NCBI GenBank assembly: GCA_009379825.1
Contig: WHTA01000054.1
Span: 1 to 39,360 of the forward strand
Source: Streptosporangiales bacterium
GTDB lineage: Bacteria > Actinomycetota > Actinomycetes > Streptosporangiales > WHST01
Direction: 5' to 3'
DNA length: 39,360 nucleotides
The notes beneath the pieces are model-generated. The model was not told where the DNA came from. It ran no database searches and saw only the letters and a list, made by a program, of their open reading frames with translations. Below are positions 3,456 through 33,598 of the stretch, piece after piece (position 1 is the first letter of the stretch; the number at the start of each line of letters is the position of its first letter). Both the position numbers and the translations under genes were made by a program.

Positions 3456-5165
3456 CTACAAATCGAGCGGGTCAAGCAGCCCGTGGCGGAGCGCGAACAG
3501 CGTCGCGGTCGAGCGCGAGGACGCCCCCGTCTTGGTGTAGATCCGCTCGATGTGGGTGCCGGCAGTCTTGCGCGAGATGCCCAGCTGGCGGGCGACGTCG
3601 CTGGTCGCCATGCCGTGCGCGATCAGCACCAGCACCTCGACTTCCCGCGCGGTGAGACCGGCCGGGCCGGCTACCGGCCGCCGGCTGCCGGCGCCTGCTG
3701 CGGCGAGGACGGCGTCGGCGGCGGCCTGGTCCAGTCGCCCGGCGGCCACCTCGCCTCGGATCCTTGTGGCGGCCTGCTTGACGCTCAGGGCCGGCCGCCC
3801 GGCCCGCGGTTCGACGAGCTCGTGGAACGCACACGCCGCGGCGAGAATCCGGCCGGACATCGGGATCGCGGTGCCGATCACTCCGCGGTGGTAGCCGGTG
3901 CCGTCCATCCGCTCGTGCGCGAACCCGGCGATCGCCCCCAACCTGGCCAGCGCCCGCGGGCGAGCCAGCACGCGCTCGGTGTAGTACGAGCTGGCGCGCA
4001 GCCGCTCCCGCTCGACACCGGTCAGCGAGGTCGGCTTGTCCAGGATGGTGATCGACACCCCGTGCAGCCCGATGTCGTGGACCAGTCCGGCGCGGTACAC
4101 CGCGACCGCGTCCGGCGTCGACAGCCGCAGCAGTCCTGACGCCGCTCGGGCGAGGTCGGCGACGCCCCGCGAGTGACCGGCCCGCGAGGTGCACCGCAGG
4201 TCGGTGAAGTCGGCCAGCGCCACCAGCGCGGTGTCCAGCTGCTCCTCGAGCAGCGGGCGCGCCAGCGCCGGTTGCGCCGCGATGAGCTCGTGCGCGTCGT
4301 AGCCATCGTCATCGGACGGCAGGATCTCGCCGGCGATCTCGCAGAATGCGTCGACCAGCGCCGGGTCGAACTGCTTGCCGCGCCGAGCCTTGGCCACCTC
4401 GACCGCGGCAGGCACACCACCGCGCCTGTGGTGCACCTCGACCACGTCGGCGAGGTGGAACAGTCGCACCTGCAGCGGGAGCTGCTCCCCGCCGACCCCG
4501 CGCGGGACTCCCCCGCCGTCCCAGCGAGCGAAGAACTGCCGCAGCGCCAACGAAATCTCGGGTCCGAGTCCGAGCTGGTCGGCCAGCGTGGAGGTGGTCA
4601 GGCAATGGCCCTGGATGCCACGGGCGACCCGGCTGCCACCGCTGGCCACCAGCGTGGCGACGGCCAGCAGGCGCTGCGGGAGCGGACGATCCGCGCCGGC
4701 ATGGCTCAGGAAGAACGCGAAACCGGGCAGGCCACCCAGGTCCGCGTCGTAGCTGTCCGCCCGGAAGGCGATGTCGTCACCGAAGCTCGCAGCCACCTCA
4801 GGGGCATCGGCCACGCACCCCACCCAGGCCAGCATCGCGACGTGGAACAGCGCCGGCTGCTCCCCCTCGGGCAACCCGACGTGCCGGCCCAGCCGTGCCG
4901 CGACCTGCCACGCCCGAAGCAGGTGCTCCATCGGCTGCCCCAGCCCCAGATCGGTTGCCAGCGAGAAGGCCGCCAGCAACTGGGCCAGGCTGACGCCTGC
5001 GTCTGCGTTGCCGTCGGTCTGGCCCCTGTCCACGAGTTCAGCGTAGGAGTCGCCGGGACCGACCGCCCCCGAATCGAGGCTGATCGTTGGCTCGGCATGC
5101 GCGAGCAACGCCAGGATCGCGATGACACCGTAATGGGCAGCCTGCCTGACGCAGCTTCGCCCCAC
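3456..5165 (-). CDS. tandem HD-GYP-like domains fused to a LuxR-type HTH regulator
   Basis: Up to 569 residues. The C-terminus (about 503-563) is a LuxR/GerE helix-turn-helix, with GLTAREVEVL and RKTAGTHIERIY. Residues about 310-490 form an HD-GYP-like phosphohydrolase domain with LVHDIG (HD pair) and HERMDGTGYHRG (GYP-type motif). The N-terminal half also ends in an HD-GYP-like second half (FFARWDGGGVPRG, then FHLADVVEVHH and FDPALVDAF), so there are two copies. The N-terminal copy shows no clear HD pair and may be non-catalytic. HD-GYP domains usually hydrolyse cyclic dinucleotides or sense ligands; LuxR domains bind DNA. The start is uncertain: homology begins near residue 60, and a GTG at 5033 is an alternative to the GTG at 5165. 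It heads the DsrE/methyltransferase group. Confidence 0.82.
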   Translation of the reverse strand: MGRSCVRQAAHYGVIAILALLAHAEPTISLDSGAVGPGDSYAELVDRGQTDGNADAGVSLAQLLAAFSLATDLGLGQPMEHLLRAWQVAARLGRHVGLPEGEQPALFHVAMLAWVGCVADAPEVAASFGDDIAFRADSYDADLGGLPGFAFFLSHAGADRPLPQRLLAVATLVASGGSRVARGIQGHCLTTSTLADQLGLGPEISLALRQFFARWDGGGVPRGVGGEQLPLQVRLFHLADVVEVHHRRGGVPAAVEVAKARRGKQFDPALVDAFCEIAGEILPSDDDGYDAHELIAAQPALARPLLEEQLDTALVALADFTDLRCTSRAGHSRGVADLARAASGLLRLSTPDAVAVYRAGLVHDIGLHGVSITILDKPTSLTGVERERLRASSYYTERVLARPRALARLGAIAGFAHERMDGTGYHRGVIGTAIPMSGRILAAACAFHELVEPRAGRPALSVKQAATRIRGEVAAGRLDQAAADAVLAAAGAGSRRPVAGPAGLTAREVEVLVLIAHGMATSDVARQLGISRKTAGTHIERIYTKTGASSRSTATLFALRHGLLDPLDL

Positions 5166-5192
5166 GGAGGTGCGTGACCGTGGATTTCAAGG

Positions 5193-5440
5193 ATGCCGAT
5201 CGGCTTCCTCACCGAGCACACCAAGCCGGGGACGCACCTCCGACGCCGCCAGTTCGCCATCCTGGGGGCCGGATTCGACACTCGCTCGTTCCGGCTCGTC
5301 GCCGCCCCCGGAGGTGGCGAGGCGTTCGAGTTGGATCTGCCCGGTACCGCACCAGGTACTTCACCCCCGCCGGCCGCGACCTGACCGGCCTCGACCTGGA
5401 ACGGTTCGTCCTGGCCGAGAAGAAGGAACGACGTCGTCTG
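5193..5440 (+). pseudogene. remnant of a TIGR00027-type SAM methyltransferase
   Basis: Two pieces of a leucine-carboxyl-methyltransferase-like (Ppm1/TIGR00027) enzyme remain. The frame starting at 5193 reads an N-terminal segment with FLTEHTKPG, then the SAM motif LGAGFDTRSFRL and FELDLP. About 15 codons later a different frame reads a C-terminal-like tail, RYFTPAGRDL and LERFVLAEK. The middle of the enzyme (about 150 residues) is missing and the two parts are out of frame, so this is a deletion remnant. The tail overlaps, on the other strand, the end of the DHA2 transporter gene. Confidence 0.65.
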
Positions 5441-30818: not shown

Positions 30819-31721
30819 ATGCCATCACCCCCACCGGTGTCCCGTCGATCGCTGCTGAAGGCCGGGCTCGCCGTCTCGACCGTCGGCGTACTCGTGCCGT
30901 CCTGTGCCGCGGCGATGGCGGAGCCGGACGTGCCCAGGCGGCTACGGGCGATCGAGCGACGGTACGAGACGCGGCTCGGCGTCTACGCGCGCAACGTCGA
31001 CACCGGCGAGACCGTCAGGTACCGCAGCGGCGAGCGGTTCGCCATGTGCTCGGCGTTCAAGGGCCTATTGGCCGCGCACGTGCTGCGCGACTACGACCGC
31101 CACGGCGAGTACCTGGAGCGGGTCATCCACTACTCGAAGGACGACCTGCTCGACTGGTCCGTGGTCACCGAGAACCACGTCGACACCGGGATGGCCGTAC
31201 GCGACCTCTGCCTGGCCGCGGTCAGCCACAGCGACAACGCGGCCACCAACCTGCTGCTGCGCGAGACCGACGGACCGCACGGGCTCACCAAGTTCTGCCG
31301 GACGATCGGCGACGGGCACACCCGGTTGGACCGGCGCGAGCCGGACATGAGCTCTGCAAAGCCAGGCGACCCGCGCGACACGACCACACCGGCGGCGATC
31401 GGGCGTTCCTACGCGCGGCTCGTCCTCGGCGACGTACTGCGGCCCGCCCACCGCGACCAGCTGACGTCCTGGCTGAAGGTGAACACCACGAGCGAGCCGC
31501 GGTTCCACGCCGGCCTGCCGGACGACTGGGTGATCGGCGACAAGACCGGCACCGGCGGCTACGGCACCGTCAACGACGTCGGCATCGTCTGGACGCCGAA
31601 GGGCACGACGCTCGTCCTCGCCGTGATGTCCACGAAGGAGATCAACGGCGCCACCGCGGACGACCGCGTGGTCGCGGACACCGCCCGCCTGCTCGCCCGC
31701 GTCCTCGCCCCCGGCGAGTAG
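30819..31721 (+). CDS. bla: class A beta-lactamase with Tat-type signal
   Basis: A 300-residue serine beta-lactamase. The N-terminus has a twin-arginine motif SRRSLLKAG followed by a hydrophobic stretch; a cysteine at 29 (LVPSC) could be a lipoprotein site. Active-site motifs are Ser78-Ala-Phe-Lys81 (Ambler 70-73), Ser138-Asp-Asn140 (130-132), Glu174 in EPDMS (Glu166, with the usual Asn170 replaced by Ser) and Lys242-Thr-Gly (234-236). PGDPRDTTTP is a typical class A segment. A cysteine precedes the active serine, but position 238 is Gly, so the KPC-type disulfide is absent. It is divergent from the LysR/BlaB-like pair and is likely inducible. The ribosome site is weak. Confidence 0.93.
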   Translation: MPSPPPVSRRSLLKAGLAVSTVGVLVPSCAAAMAEPDVPRRLRAIERRYETRLGVYARNVDTGETVRYRSGERFAMCSAFKGLLAAHVLRDYDRHGEYLERVIHYSKDDLLDWSVVTENHVDTGMAVRDLCLAAVSHSDNAATNLLLRETDGPHGLTKFCRTIGDGHTRLDRREPDMSSAKPGDPRDTTTPAAIGRSYARLVLGDVLRPAHRDQLTSWLKVNTTSEPRFHAGLPDDWVIGDKTGTGGYGTVNDVGIVWTPKGTTLVLAVMSTKEINGATADDRVVADTARLLARVLAPGE

Positions 31722-31730
31722 CAGGTCACG

Positions 31731-31810
31731 TCAGTAGGCGACGGTGAGCCGCGGTTCTCCGGTACGGGTCTCCAGCTCGTCCAGCACTGCCACGGCGAGG
31801 TCCTCGGCAA
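31731..31810 (-). pseudogene. C-terminal fragment of an unidentified gene
   Basis: On the minus strand about 26 codons read LAEDLAVAVLDELETRTG and end in TVAY and a TGA at 31731, with codon use like a real gene. It stops making sense at about 31811, exactly where a truncated PucR gene begins on the other strand. It is too short to name and is probably the surviving end of a gene cut by a rearrangement. Confidence 0.35.
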
Positions 31811-32651
31811 GCGCTCAACTACGCGATCAACAAGAAGGCGGAGGGCCTGGAACGACAGACGCATCGCACGCTGCTGACCAGCGTGCTGACGCACGCGCTC
31901 CCGGTGAGCGAGCTGGCGTTGCGTGCGCGCGGTCGGCGTACCGCTCGAACGGCGCATCCTGGTGGGGATCATGCTGCGGCTGAACACCTCGGCCGTACTC
32001 GAACCACGGTCGCAGGACCAGCTGCGCGACCTTGCCCACGCGGTGCAGAGCACGTTGCGGCGGCAGGGGGTCAAGGCGCTGGTGAGCACCGTCGACGAAC
32101 GCACGGTCGCGGGCTTGCTCGCGCTGGAGCCGACCGAACCCGACGGCCCGGTGCTCGACCAGCTGGCCACGACACTGCGCGGCCAGGAATGGGCCGACCA
32201 CGTCATGATGGGCGTAGGCTCCGCGGTCACGTCGGTCAGCGGGGCGAGACACACACTGAGCGAGGCGCAGCAGGCCGCGGACGCCGCCGTCGGCTACCGG
32301 GGCAGGGCACCGTACTTCCGGCTCCCCGACGTGGGGCTGCGCGGCTCCCTGTTCCTGATGCGCGGCGACCCCCGACTGCAGACGTACGTGGAGCAGGCCC
32401 TCGGGCCGCTCCTGGCGCACGACGCGCGGCACGGCACCGAGCTGGTGTCGACGCTGGAGTGCTACCTGCGCGCCGGCTGCAACAAGTCGGCGGCGGCCCA
32501 GGCGGCGCACCTGTCCAGGCCCGCGTTCTACGAGCGGCTGAACCGCGTCCGGCGCATCCTCGGCGTCGACCCGAGCACCGTAGACACCAGGCTGTCACTG
32601 CACGTCGCCCTGGTGGCCCTGAGCATCATCCGCGACTCGGAGACGGGTTAG
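31808..32651 (+). pseudogene. truncated PucR-family regulator
   Basis: The main frame from 31923 gives 242 residues with the PucR C-terminal layout: a GGDEF-like middle (VSTVDERTVAGLLAL, MMGVGSAVTSVSGARHTLSEA) and a final PucR helix-turn-helix (TLECYLRAGCNKSAAAQAAHLS followed by FYERLNRVRRILGVD). Upstream, a second frame continues the homology back to 31808 (LNYAINKKAEGLERQTHR), separated by a shift near 31928 in a GCGCGC run. The N-terminal sensor domain is missing and no start codon or ribosome site fits the start of homology, so the gene is cut off at its 5' end. The HTH half itself looks intact and could be expressed from GTG 31923. Confidence 0.75.
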
Positions 32652-32666
32652 CGCGCGCCGCACCGA

Positions 32667-33104
32667 TCACCGTCGGTGGGCTGTGCGGCGGCGCACGCGG
32701 TCGGGTTTTACGTGCAGGGTCACTGCGAAGTCGCCGGTGCCCAGGTCTACGCGGGTCTCGGCTTCCCAGCCGTTGCCTGGTACCGGTCGCCAGGCGACCA
32801 CGATGCCGCGCCGCCACTGGCCGGTGACCAGCACCTCGGCATCCCCCGTGGGGGCTAGCCGGCCGGTGTGGGGGTGCCACCGGCCCGGCATCTCGACGCG
32901 GGTCCACTCGCCGCCGGTGCGCTCGCCTTCGACCCACCACTCCCAGGGGCACGTCGCGCCCGGCTCCGGCGGGTGGCACCGGGTGGCGAACCGACCGAGG
33001 TTCCACGACGTCGTCTGTCGGCCGGGTCCCCACGGGTGCCCGGCCGGGCAGGCCGTCGGCAGCTCCCACCAGTCCGGGAGTTGGTCACCCGGCCGCCAAC
33101 CCAT
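32667..33104 (-). CDS. SOS-type, LexA-box-controlled protein of unknown function
   Basis: A 145-residue protein from the ATG at 33104. I do not recognise its family. It is unusually rich in Trp (about ten), Pro, Gly and Arg, with three cysteines in the first half (TACPAGHPWG, TRCHPP, ATCPWEWW) plus histidines, a pattern that could bind zinc like a ribbon. The second half looks like a beta sheet (WRRGIVVAWRPVPG, ETRVDLGTGDFAVTLHV). The start is fixed by the promoter: a -10 box six bases upstream puts the first transcribed base on the A of ATG, so the message is leaderless. The promoter is covered by a perfect LexA palindrome, so expression should follow DNA damage. No neighbour shares its strand closely enough for an operon. 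Confidence 0.75.
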   Translation of the reverse strand: MGWRPGDQLPDWWELPTACPAGHPWGPGRQTTSWNLGRFATRCHPPEPGATCPWEWWVEGERTGGEWTRVEMPGRWHPHTGRLAPTGDAEVLVTGQWRRGIVVAWRPVPGNGWEAETRVDLGTGDFAVTLHVKPDRVRRRTAHRR

Positions 33105-33139
33105 ATCTCGAACATATGTTCGATTCAAGATCAGGTCAA
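33104..33139 (-). promoter_or_regulatory. leaderless promoter overlapped by a perfect LexA (SOS) box
   Basis: On the minus strand, TTGACC (complement of 33134-33139), 17 bases, TATGTT (complement of 33111-33116), six bases, then ATG at 33104. TCGAACATATGTTCGA at 33108-33123 is a perfect 16-base palindrome matching the actinobacterial LexA consensus TCGAAC-N4-GTTCGA and covers the whole -10 box and the stretch up to the start. Confidence 0.88.
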
Positions 33140-33313
33140 CATTTCCCGGAAGCCGAGGCGATATGCAGGCTTTGTCGGCTGCTGACCGCTGTCTGCGTGC
33201 AGGTGACATAGCTCTCCGCACGCTTCGACCTCCGTCGAGTTGCCGTTCCCGCTACGCTGCGGAAGAGGTAGGCATGCAACGGGTGGCAGACCGGCCTCAA
33301 CGGAGGGGACATC

Positions 33314-33598
33314 ATGGCACCAGCACGTAGCGAGTTCGAGGTGGTCCCGACGGGGACCGAATGGCAGATCAAACGTGACGGCCAGGAATTCGTCGCGGTC
33401 CAGACCAAGCAGGTCGCGGTCGACGAGGCGGTCTTCCAGGCCAGCCGCAATGCGCCGAGCCACGTCGTCGTACGGCGTCTCGACGGCGGTATCGAGGACG
33501 AAGCCAACTTCGGCGACGCTCCCCAGAACGCCGCTCCCGCTGGCCAGCAGCAGCAGCCGGCGGCGGTCCGCCCACTCCAGGTCGTGAACCGGCAGTAA
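33314..33598 (+). CDS. DUF2188-family small protein, second copy
   Basis: A 94-residue protein from the ATG at 33314 with a strong GGAGGGG ribosome site. FEVVPTGTEWQIKRDG, then FVAVQTKQVAVDEAVFQA and EDEANFGDAP, align throughout with the DUF2188 protein at 17340 in this window. The tail is Gln/Ala/Pro-rich (GQQQQPAA) and probably disordered. Function is unknown. It is convergent with the EamA exporter gene and stands 200 bases from the LexA-controlled gene, reading away from it. Confidence 0.85.
   Translation: MAPARSEFEVVPTGTEWQIKRDGQEFVAVQTKQVAVDEAVFQASRNAPSHVVVRRLDGGIEDEANFGDAPQNAAPAGQQQQPAAVRPLQVVNRQ

What the first reader, a model, noticed from the sequence alone, without database searches (positions are those of the whole stretch)
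32667..33139. Unknown leaderless gene under a perfect LexA box
The sequence shows TTGACC, 17 bases, TATGTT, six bases, ATG, with the perfect palindrome TCGAAC-ATAT-GTTCGA covering the -10 box. The match to the actinobacterial SOS consensus is exact, and the spacing makes the first transcribed base the A of the start codon. The encoded 145-residue protein is Trp- and Cys-rich and resembles no family I know. This is a strong candidate for a new DNA-damage-induced function, possibly a nucleic-acid-binding or toxin-like protein; the function is inference only.
Basis: partly seen in the sequence, partly recalled or inferred. Interest (0 to 1): 0.75.

Follow-up and report, generated by a model that had tools for sequence, protein, structure and literature searches.

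The report
DNA-damage-controlled gene of undescribed zinc-protein family
The window holds a gene under a perfect DNA-damage (SOS/LexA) switch, and its protein is a diverged, enlarged relative of a small, probably metal-binding protein family that I found in no curated family database; relatives on actinobacterial chromosomes, plasmids and prophages mostly carry the same switch, so the family looks like an unrecognised part of the actinobacterial SOS response.

Summary
The protein alone looks like an orphan, with no Pfam, NCBIfam, PHROG, PADLOC or PDB relative. However, its first ~56 residues match an undescribed family of small proteins (CPxGHxWxPGxxxVGWxPCxC...GHRTxxCxxC). A profile built without the window protein finds it at E = 3.3e-8. 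The family occurs in 75 of 346 genomes of the order, on Rhodococcus plasmids and in prophages/phages. A LexA box with at most 2 mismatches lies just upstream of 36 of 57 members, against 0.64 expected; 16 have at most 1 mismatch, against 0. Promoter sequence outside the box is near random (31% identity). In 15 of 34 members a TANNNT hexamer sits 6-8 nt before the start codon (0.7 expected), supporting leaderless transcription in the window and one large clade. The window protein is a distant relative: it has lost the CxC...H half of the conserved metal ligands and gained an ~85-residue tail without relatives. Molecular function is unknown; my best guess is a LexA-repressed small metal-ribbon protein binding nucleic acid or a partner protein. 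No induction data exist here.

The parts
33134..33139 (-). -35-like hexamer TTGACC
   Evidence: read directly
33108..33123 (.). perfect LexA/SOS palindrome TCGAAC-ATAT-GTTCGA
   Evidence: kept in relatives
33111..33116 (-). -10 hexamer TATGTT inside the LexA box; 6 nt before ATG, so a leaderless start is predicted
   Evidence: geometry in relatives
32667..33104 (-). coding sequence of the 145-aa protein (P0001), stop codon included
   Evidence: codon-position GC
32925..33104 (-). residues 1-60: domain related to the small CPxGH...GHRTxxCxxC family; C19, H23, C43, C52 kept, CxC and GH lost
   Evidence: AlphaFold pLDDT about 75-90 over residues 11-70
32670..32924 (-). residues 61-145: extension without detectable relatives; predicted beta-rich at low confidence

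Best explanation
This is a LexA-repressed, DNA-damage-induced single gene. LexA bound to the palindrome covers the -10 element and blocks RNA polymerase. After DNA damage LexA is cleaved, and a leaderless or nearly leaderless mRNA is made, starting at the A of the ATG. The product is a diverged, extended relative of a small (65-80 aa) soluble actinobacterial family whose invariant C-x3-H, C-x-C, H and C-x2/4-C residues predict a metal (zinc) ribbon. The family works most likely as a stress-time binding protein, on nucleic acid or on a repair, replication or transcription partner, and is carried both by chromosomes and by mobile elements. Shown by computation: the box, its conservation, the promoter geometry and the homology. 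Inferred: LexA binding, induction, metal binding and the binding function (the last step about 0.35).
For: Sequence. The A1 profile, built without the window protein, finds it at E = 3.3e-8. Box with <=2 mismatches at 36 of 57 members against 0.64 expected, maximum 4 in 200 draws. 29 non-redundant promoters are only 31% identical outside the box. TANNNT 6-8 nt before the start in 15 of 34 against 0.69 expected. Plasmid, phage and prophage copies also carry the box. This genome has lexA with three boxes upstream, recA with a one-mismatch box about 140 bp upstream, and a radical SAM gene under a perfect box, a type of gene listed as a LexA target in S. venezuelae (PMC9380542). The experimental consensus there is tCGAAC-N4-GNNCGa. 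Seven Cys/His positions are invariant in 25 of 25 relatives aligned. AlphaFold gives a confident small three-strand fold for a short member (pLDDT 84).
Against: No induction or binding data. Members were not sampled independently; counting only distinct promoters lowers the number to 29. Sub-clades lacking a near box exist (mycobacteriophage type). Fold comparison gave no significant match. The window protein lacks three of seven invariant ligands, so its metal site may be altered or lost. The genus relative G001 lacks the gene at this place, so it is not a conserved core gene of the lineage.
Confidence: 0.66

Rival explanations
1. SOS checkpoint protein: the product halts cell division after DNA damage, like SulA, SosA, DivS or ChiZ.
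For: Small, SOS-boxed, stand-alone gene, lineage-specific, as division inhibitors tend to be; SosA is a precedent for unrelated proteins taking this role (PMC6851548).
Against: No hydrophobic membrane segment and no LysM or SulA match; the Cys/His pattern suggests a metal ribbon; carriage on plasmids and phages is not typical.
Confidence: 0.12
2. Accessory gene of mobile elements (a moron): plasmids and prophages use the host SOS signal to express a small protein that modifies host or rival-element behaviour (anti-repressor, exclusion, restriction alleviation or toxin), and chromosomal copies are domesticated.
For: Copies on more than 50 Rhodococcus plasmids, in the integrase-side region of phage ReT1v-1, next to an integrase in L118, and six matches in one genome.
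Against: One large genus carries mostly a single copy in over 50 genomes; no conserved partner gene; no PADLOC match.
Confidence: 0.3
3. The palindrome is a chance or unrelated site and the gene is not SOS-controlled.
For: At one mismatch the genome holds 61 sites against 25 for a control pattern, so many near-sites are background.
Against: Conservation in relatives is about 50 times chance and confined to the box.
Confidence: 0.04
4. The window protein is not homologous to the small family; the CPAGHPWGPG stretch is a coincidence.
For: The match covers about 30-56 residues; CxC and the GH histidine are missing, and the rest has no relatives.
Against: E = 3.3e-8 with an independent profile, 57-65% identity over about 28 residues in several genomes, and the same LexA-box-to-start arrangement.
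Confidence: 0.08

Closest known systems
PHROG phrog_12017 (phage proteins of unknown function)
   Same: Short members of the family match it (best E = 3.1e-5): similar size and CPxGH...VGWxPC core.
   Different: The window protein itself has no hit. PHROG gives no function and no SOS link; the mycobacteriophage relatives examined here lack a near LexA box.
Actinobacterial LexA/SOS regulon (e.g. Streptomyces venezuelae, PMC9380542)
   Same: Operator matches tCGAAC-N4-GNNCGa and overlaps the promoter.
   Different: I found no description of this gene family as a LexA target in the open-access library; supplementary target lists could not be checked.
SOS-induced small effectors (SulA, SosA, DivS/ChiZ, TisB, DinQ)
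   Same: Small stand-alone product, expected to be made on DNA damage.
   Different: No membrane segment; Cys/His ribbon pattern; no sequence relation.
Zinc ribbons such as archaeal RNase P protein Rpp21 (1x0t)
   Same: Top VIA-align row for the short model (Z 4.2, 54 residues, rmsd 4.5).
   Different: Far below a convincing match; Foldseek found nothing with E < 1.

Membership tests
LexA/SOS regulon of Actinobacteria | operator matching TCGAAC-N4-GTTCGA in the promoter | tested here: met
   perfect, overlaps the -10
LexA/SOS regulon of Actinobacteria | operator kept upstream of related genes | tested here: met
   36 of 57 with <=2 mismatches against 0.64 expected
LexA/SOS regulon of Actinobacteria | genome encodes LexA and RecA with such boxes | tested here: met
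LexA/SOS regulon of Actinobacteria | LexA binding and induction by DNA damage | not testable with these tools
   needs an experiment
undescribed small CPxGH...GHRTxxCxxC family | significant profile match | tested here: met
   E = 3.3e-8, profile built without the window protein
undescribed small CPxGH...GHRTxxCxxC family | C-x3-H and the two later cysteines | tested here: inconclusive
   C19, H23 and C43 kept; C52 aligns with the last Cys in A2 and A7 but not in A8
undescribed small CPxGH...GHRTxxCxxC family | C-x-C and the GH histidine | tested here: not met
   absent in the window protein, invariant in 25 relatives; so it is a diverged relative, not a canonical member
undescribed small CPxGH...GHRTxxCxxC family | length about 65-80 aa | tested here: not met
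   145 aa
phrog_12017 | profile match | tested here: not met
   window protein 0 families; relatives match weakly
SOS cell-division inhibitors | match to SulA or LysM, or a membrane segment | tested here: not met
   no Pfam match; no hydrophobic segment seen on reading the sequence
type II toxin-antitoxin systems | conserved adjacent partner gene | tested here: not met
   no neighbour shared by more than 5 of 17 loci
zinc ribbon fold | structural match to a solved ribbon | tested here: inconclusive
   best Z 4.2; no significant Foldseek hit

The most novel reading that the evidence does not exclude
An unnamed metal-ribbon protein family is a widespread, LexA-controlled, often leaderless effector of the actinobacterial DNA-damage response, shared by chromosomes, conjugative plasmids and prophages, with a new molecular role (for example modulating RNA polymerase, RecA or replication). 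The window protein is a variant in which one metal half-site was lost and a new domain gained.
Probability: 0.3. Interest if true: 0.8.

Novelty: new variant of a known kind. Interest (0 to 1): 0.6.

Why it matters
SOS regulons are well mapped in a few model bacteria, but most actinobacterial LexA targets have no known function. Here one protein family is tied to LexA by comparative evidence across chromosomes, plasmids and phages, yet I found it in no curated family library. The plasmid copies carry no entry in the (incomplete) PLSDB gene table, perhaps because the genes are very short and start at or next to the operator. It gives a defined list of genes for direct tests in culturable Rhodococcus strains.

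Tried and rejected
Single-protein searches of genome and viral collections found nothing, nor did phages and plasmids. Only the order-wide six-frame search with a looser cut-off exposed the family. The G002 hit is a reading, in another frame, of a peptidase gene region: rejected. The L006 reading MWQPLADPPPDWEILT near another LexA box looked like a paralog but stops after 16 residues: rejected. A suspected frameshift from an uneven GC3 split was my own phase error (the split point was not a multiple of three); both halves have coding bias. Fold searches gave no usable match; pdb_via rows for the full protein fall only on the low-confidence C-terminal part. No adjacent partner gene was found. 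The A4 profile was too diverse for the viral scan, so A5 was used. A literature search with family peptide strings gave nothing. A first script for -10 geometry failed on its pattern; one search replaces it. The box logo is inflated by selecting promoters with <=2 mismatches; the unbiased figure is.

Full report
OBSERVATION. The minus strand reads TTGACC-17-TATGTT-6-ATG, with TCGAACATATGTTCGA at 33108-33123 covering the -10, and a 145-residue frame to 32667. It is the only site within three mismatches in the window, against 0.05 in shuffles. The genome holds eight perfect sites of the TCGAAC-N4-GTTCGA form. The ORF has coding composition (GC3 0.87). An in-frame GTG lies upstream at 33221, but relatives start just after the box, so 33104 is the better start.

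THE GENOME USES THIS OPERATOR. lexA (C80) has three boxes upstream: CCGAACATGCGTTCGA, TCGAACAAATGTTTGA and TCGAATGTATGTACGA. recA (C28:5429-6214) has TCGAACAAGTGTTCGG about 140 bp upstream. A radical SAM gene follows a perfect box (identified by its sequence); a radical SAM protein gene is a LexA target in Streptomyces venezuelae, where the measured consensus is tCGAAC-N4-GNNCGa (PMC9380542).

THE PROTEIN IS NOT AN ORPHAN. Pfam, PHROGs, NCBIfam, PADLOC and PDB sequences give nothing useful. A six-frame search of 347 genomes of the order gave short matches of 57-65% identity to residues 9-37. These lie at the start of 65-80-residue proteins: RPDWWxYPxxCPAGHPWxPGRVxVxWxPCDCP...GHLxVRCRxxGCxxxWYRPRH. 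A profile of ten of them (A1), built without the window protein, recovers it at E = 3.3e-8 and finds the family in 75 of 346 genomes of the order, over 50 of them in one large genus. A wider profile finds 10 of 395 genomes in the class. Relatives occur on 56 plasmid records, 54 of them Rhodococcus, with no gene listed under the matches shown in the incomplete PLSDB table; in Rhodococcus phage ReT1v-1 and mycobacteriophages; and in IMG/VR prophages. Short members match phrog_12017, function unknown (best E 3.1e-5). No Pfam or NCBIfam model fits.

THE BOX BELONGS TO THE FAMILY. Members were collected by protein similarity only. In the 130 nt before the first invariant Cys codon, 16 of 57 have a LexA box with at most one mismatch (control 0) and 36 with at most two (control mean 0.64, maximum 4 of 200 draws; reversed pattern 1). 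Among members with the VGW/VSW motif it is 35 of 44 (my count). Box spelling differs by clade: TCGAANNNNTGTTCTA, TCGATCATATGTTCGA, TCGAACNNNTGTGCGA. Twenty-nine non-redundant promoters average 31% identity outside the box. In another, SQVC-type prophage clade, about half of the loci have a one-mismatch box further upstream, and L108 a perfect one. The box end lies 3-26 nt from the start codon, and 15 of 34 members have TANNNT 6-8 nt before the start against 0.69 expected. Leaderless transcription is therefore well supported for the window gene and the large-genus clade, and not shown for the Rhodococcus/phage clade.

WHAT THE PROTEIN LOOKS LIKE. C16, H20, C34, C36, H47, C52 and C57 (numbering of the L046 protein) are invariant in the 25 relatives aligned. 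This predicts metal binding (inference from the pattern; not tested). AlphaFold gives a confident small beta fold for the short member (pLDDT 84) and confidence of about 75-90 for window residues 11-70, low for the tail. Fold searches found no significant match; archaeal RNase P Rpp21, a zinc ribbon, tops the VIA list at only Z 4.2. The window protein keeps C19, H23, C43 and perhaps C52, but has lost CxC and the GH histidine together. This suggests two groups of ligands, of which one was lost (inference). Residues 61-145 have no detectable relatives.

CONTEXT. In the genome of the same genus with sequence in this region (G001), only the neighbouring PucR-type regulator gene matches, at 75% DNA identity, and not the SOS gene; G001 has no family member. 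The gene is thus lineage-specific at this place (gain here or loss there). No conserved partner gene was found near relatives.

MECHANISM. LexA occupancy of the palindrome covers the -10; LexA loss after damage frees the promoter; a leaderless mRNA is translated from its first codon. Regulation is inferred from strong comparative evidence. The protein's job is a guess: a small metal-ribbon binder of nucleic acid or of a partner in the damage response, with a mobile-element accessory role as the main rival.

NOVELTY. I found no named family and no paper describing it in the open-access library. Supplementary LexA target lists were not readable here, so single members may be listed there as hypothetical proteins. 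As an operator-gene arrangement it is ordinary SOS; as a protein family with a broadly kept SOS link it appears new.

Noticed in passing
window 31800-32651 (+): The PucR-type regulator next door is a truncated, frameshifted copy: the homologue in G001 (L143, minus strand 3601-5352) is a 583-aa ORF, whereas here the frame breaks near 31930 and the 5' part is missing next to a class A beta-lactamase-like gene (30819-31721).
   Followed up: partly
window 33314-33598 (+): DUF2188 protein gene, divergent from the SOS gene; the palindrome could in principle also affect it.
   Followed up: no
G000:C65:24828-24843 (L010:1501-1516): The identical 16-mer TCGAACATATGTTCGA lies 63 bp before a 5-formyltetrahydrofolate cyclo-ligase gene, not a classic SOS gene.
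   Followed up: partly
G000:C61:1337-1352 (L009): Perfect LexA box before a short gene containing FAEPIDVESRDACPTSFRWRGRVYRVQGVLAHWLETGPLW, which looks (from memory) like the DUF6504 type found near imuB/dnaE2.
   Followed up: no
G104 (six matches) and G107:C181:7241-7595: Some genomes hold several copies of the family; in G107 a tandem pair has a broken first copy with a stop, suggesting recent duplication and decay.
   Followed up: partly
L101:4313-4549; L113:2681-3361: BrnT-type toxin annotation next to a plasmid copy and next to a mycobacteriophage relative (Sejanus); two cases only.
   Followed up: no
L123, L128, L130, L131, L133: SQVC-type prophage relatives carry TCGCACGGGTGTTCGA-like boxes 114-118 nt upstream of the aligned Glu, rather than at the start codon.
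   Followed up: partly
G000:C11:29065-29080 (L006): Perfect LexA-type box between a sigma-factor gene (minus, 392-1330 of L006) and a gene on the plus strand starting at 1600.
   Followed up: no
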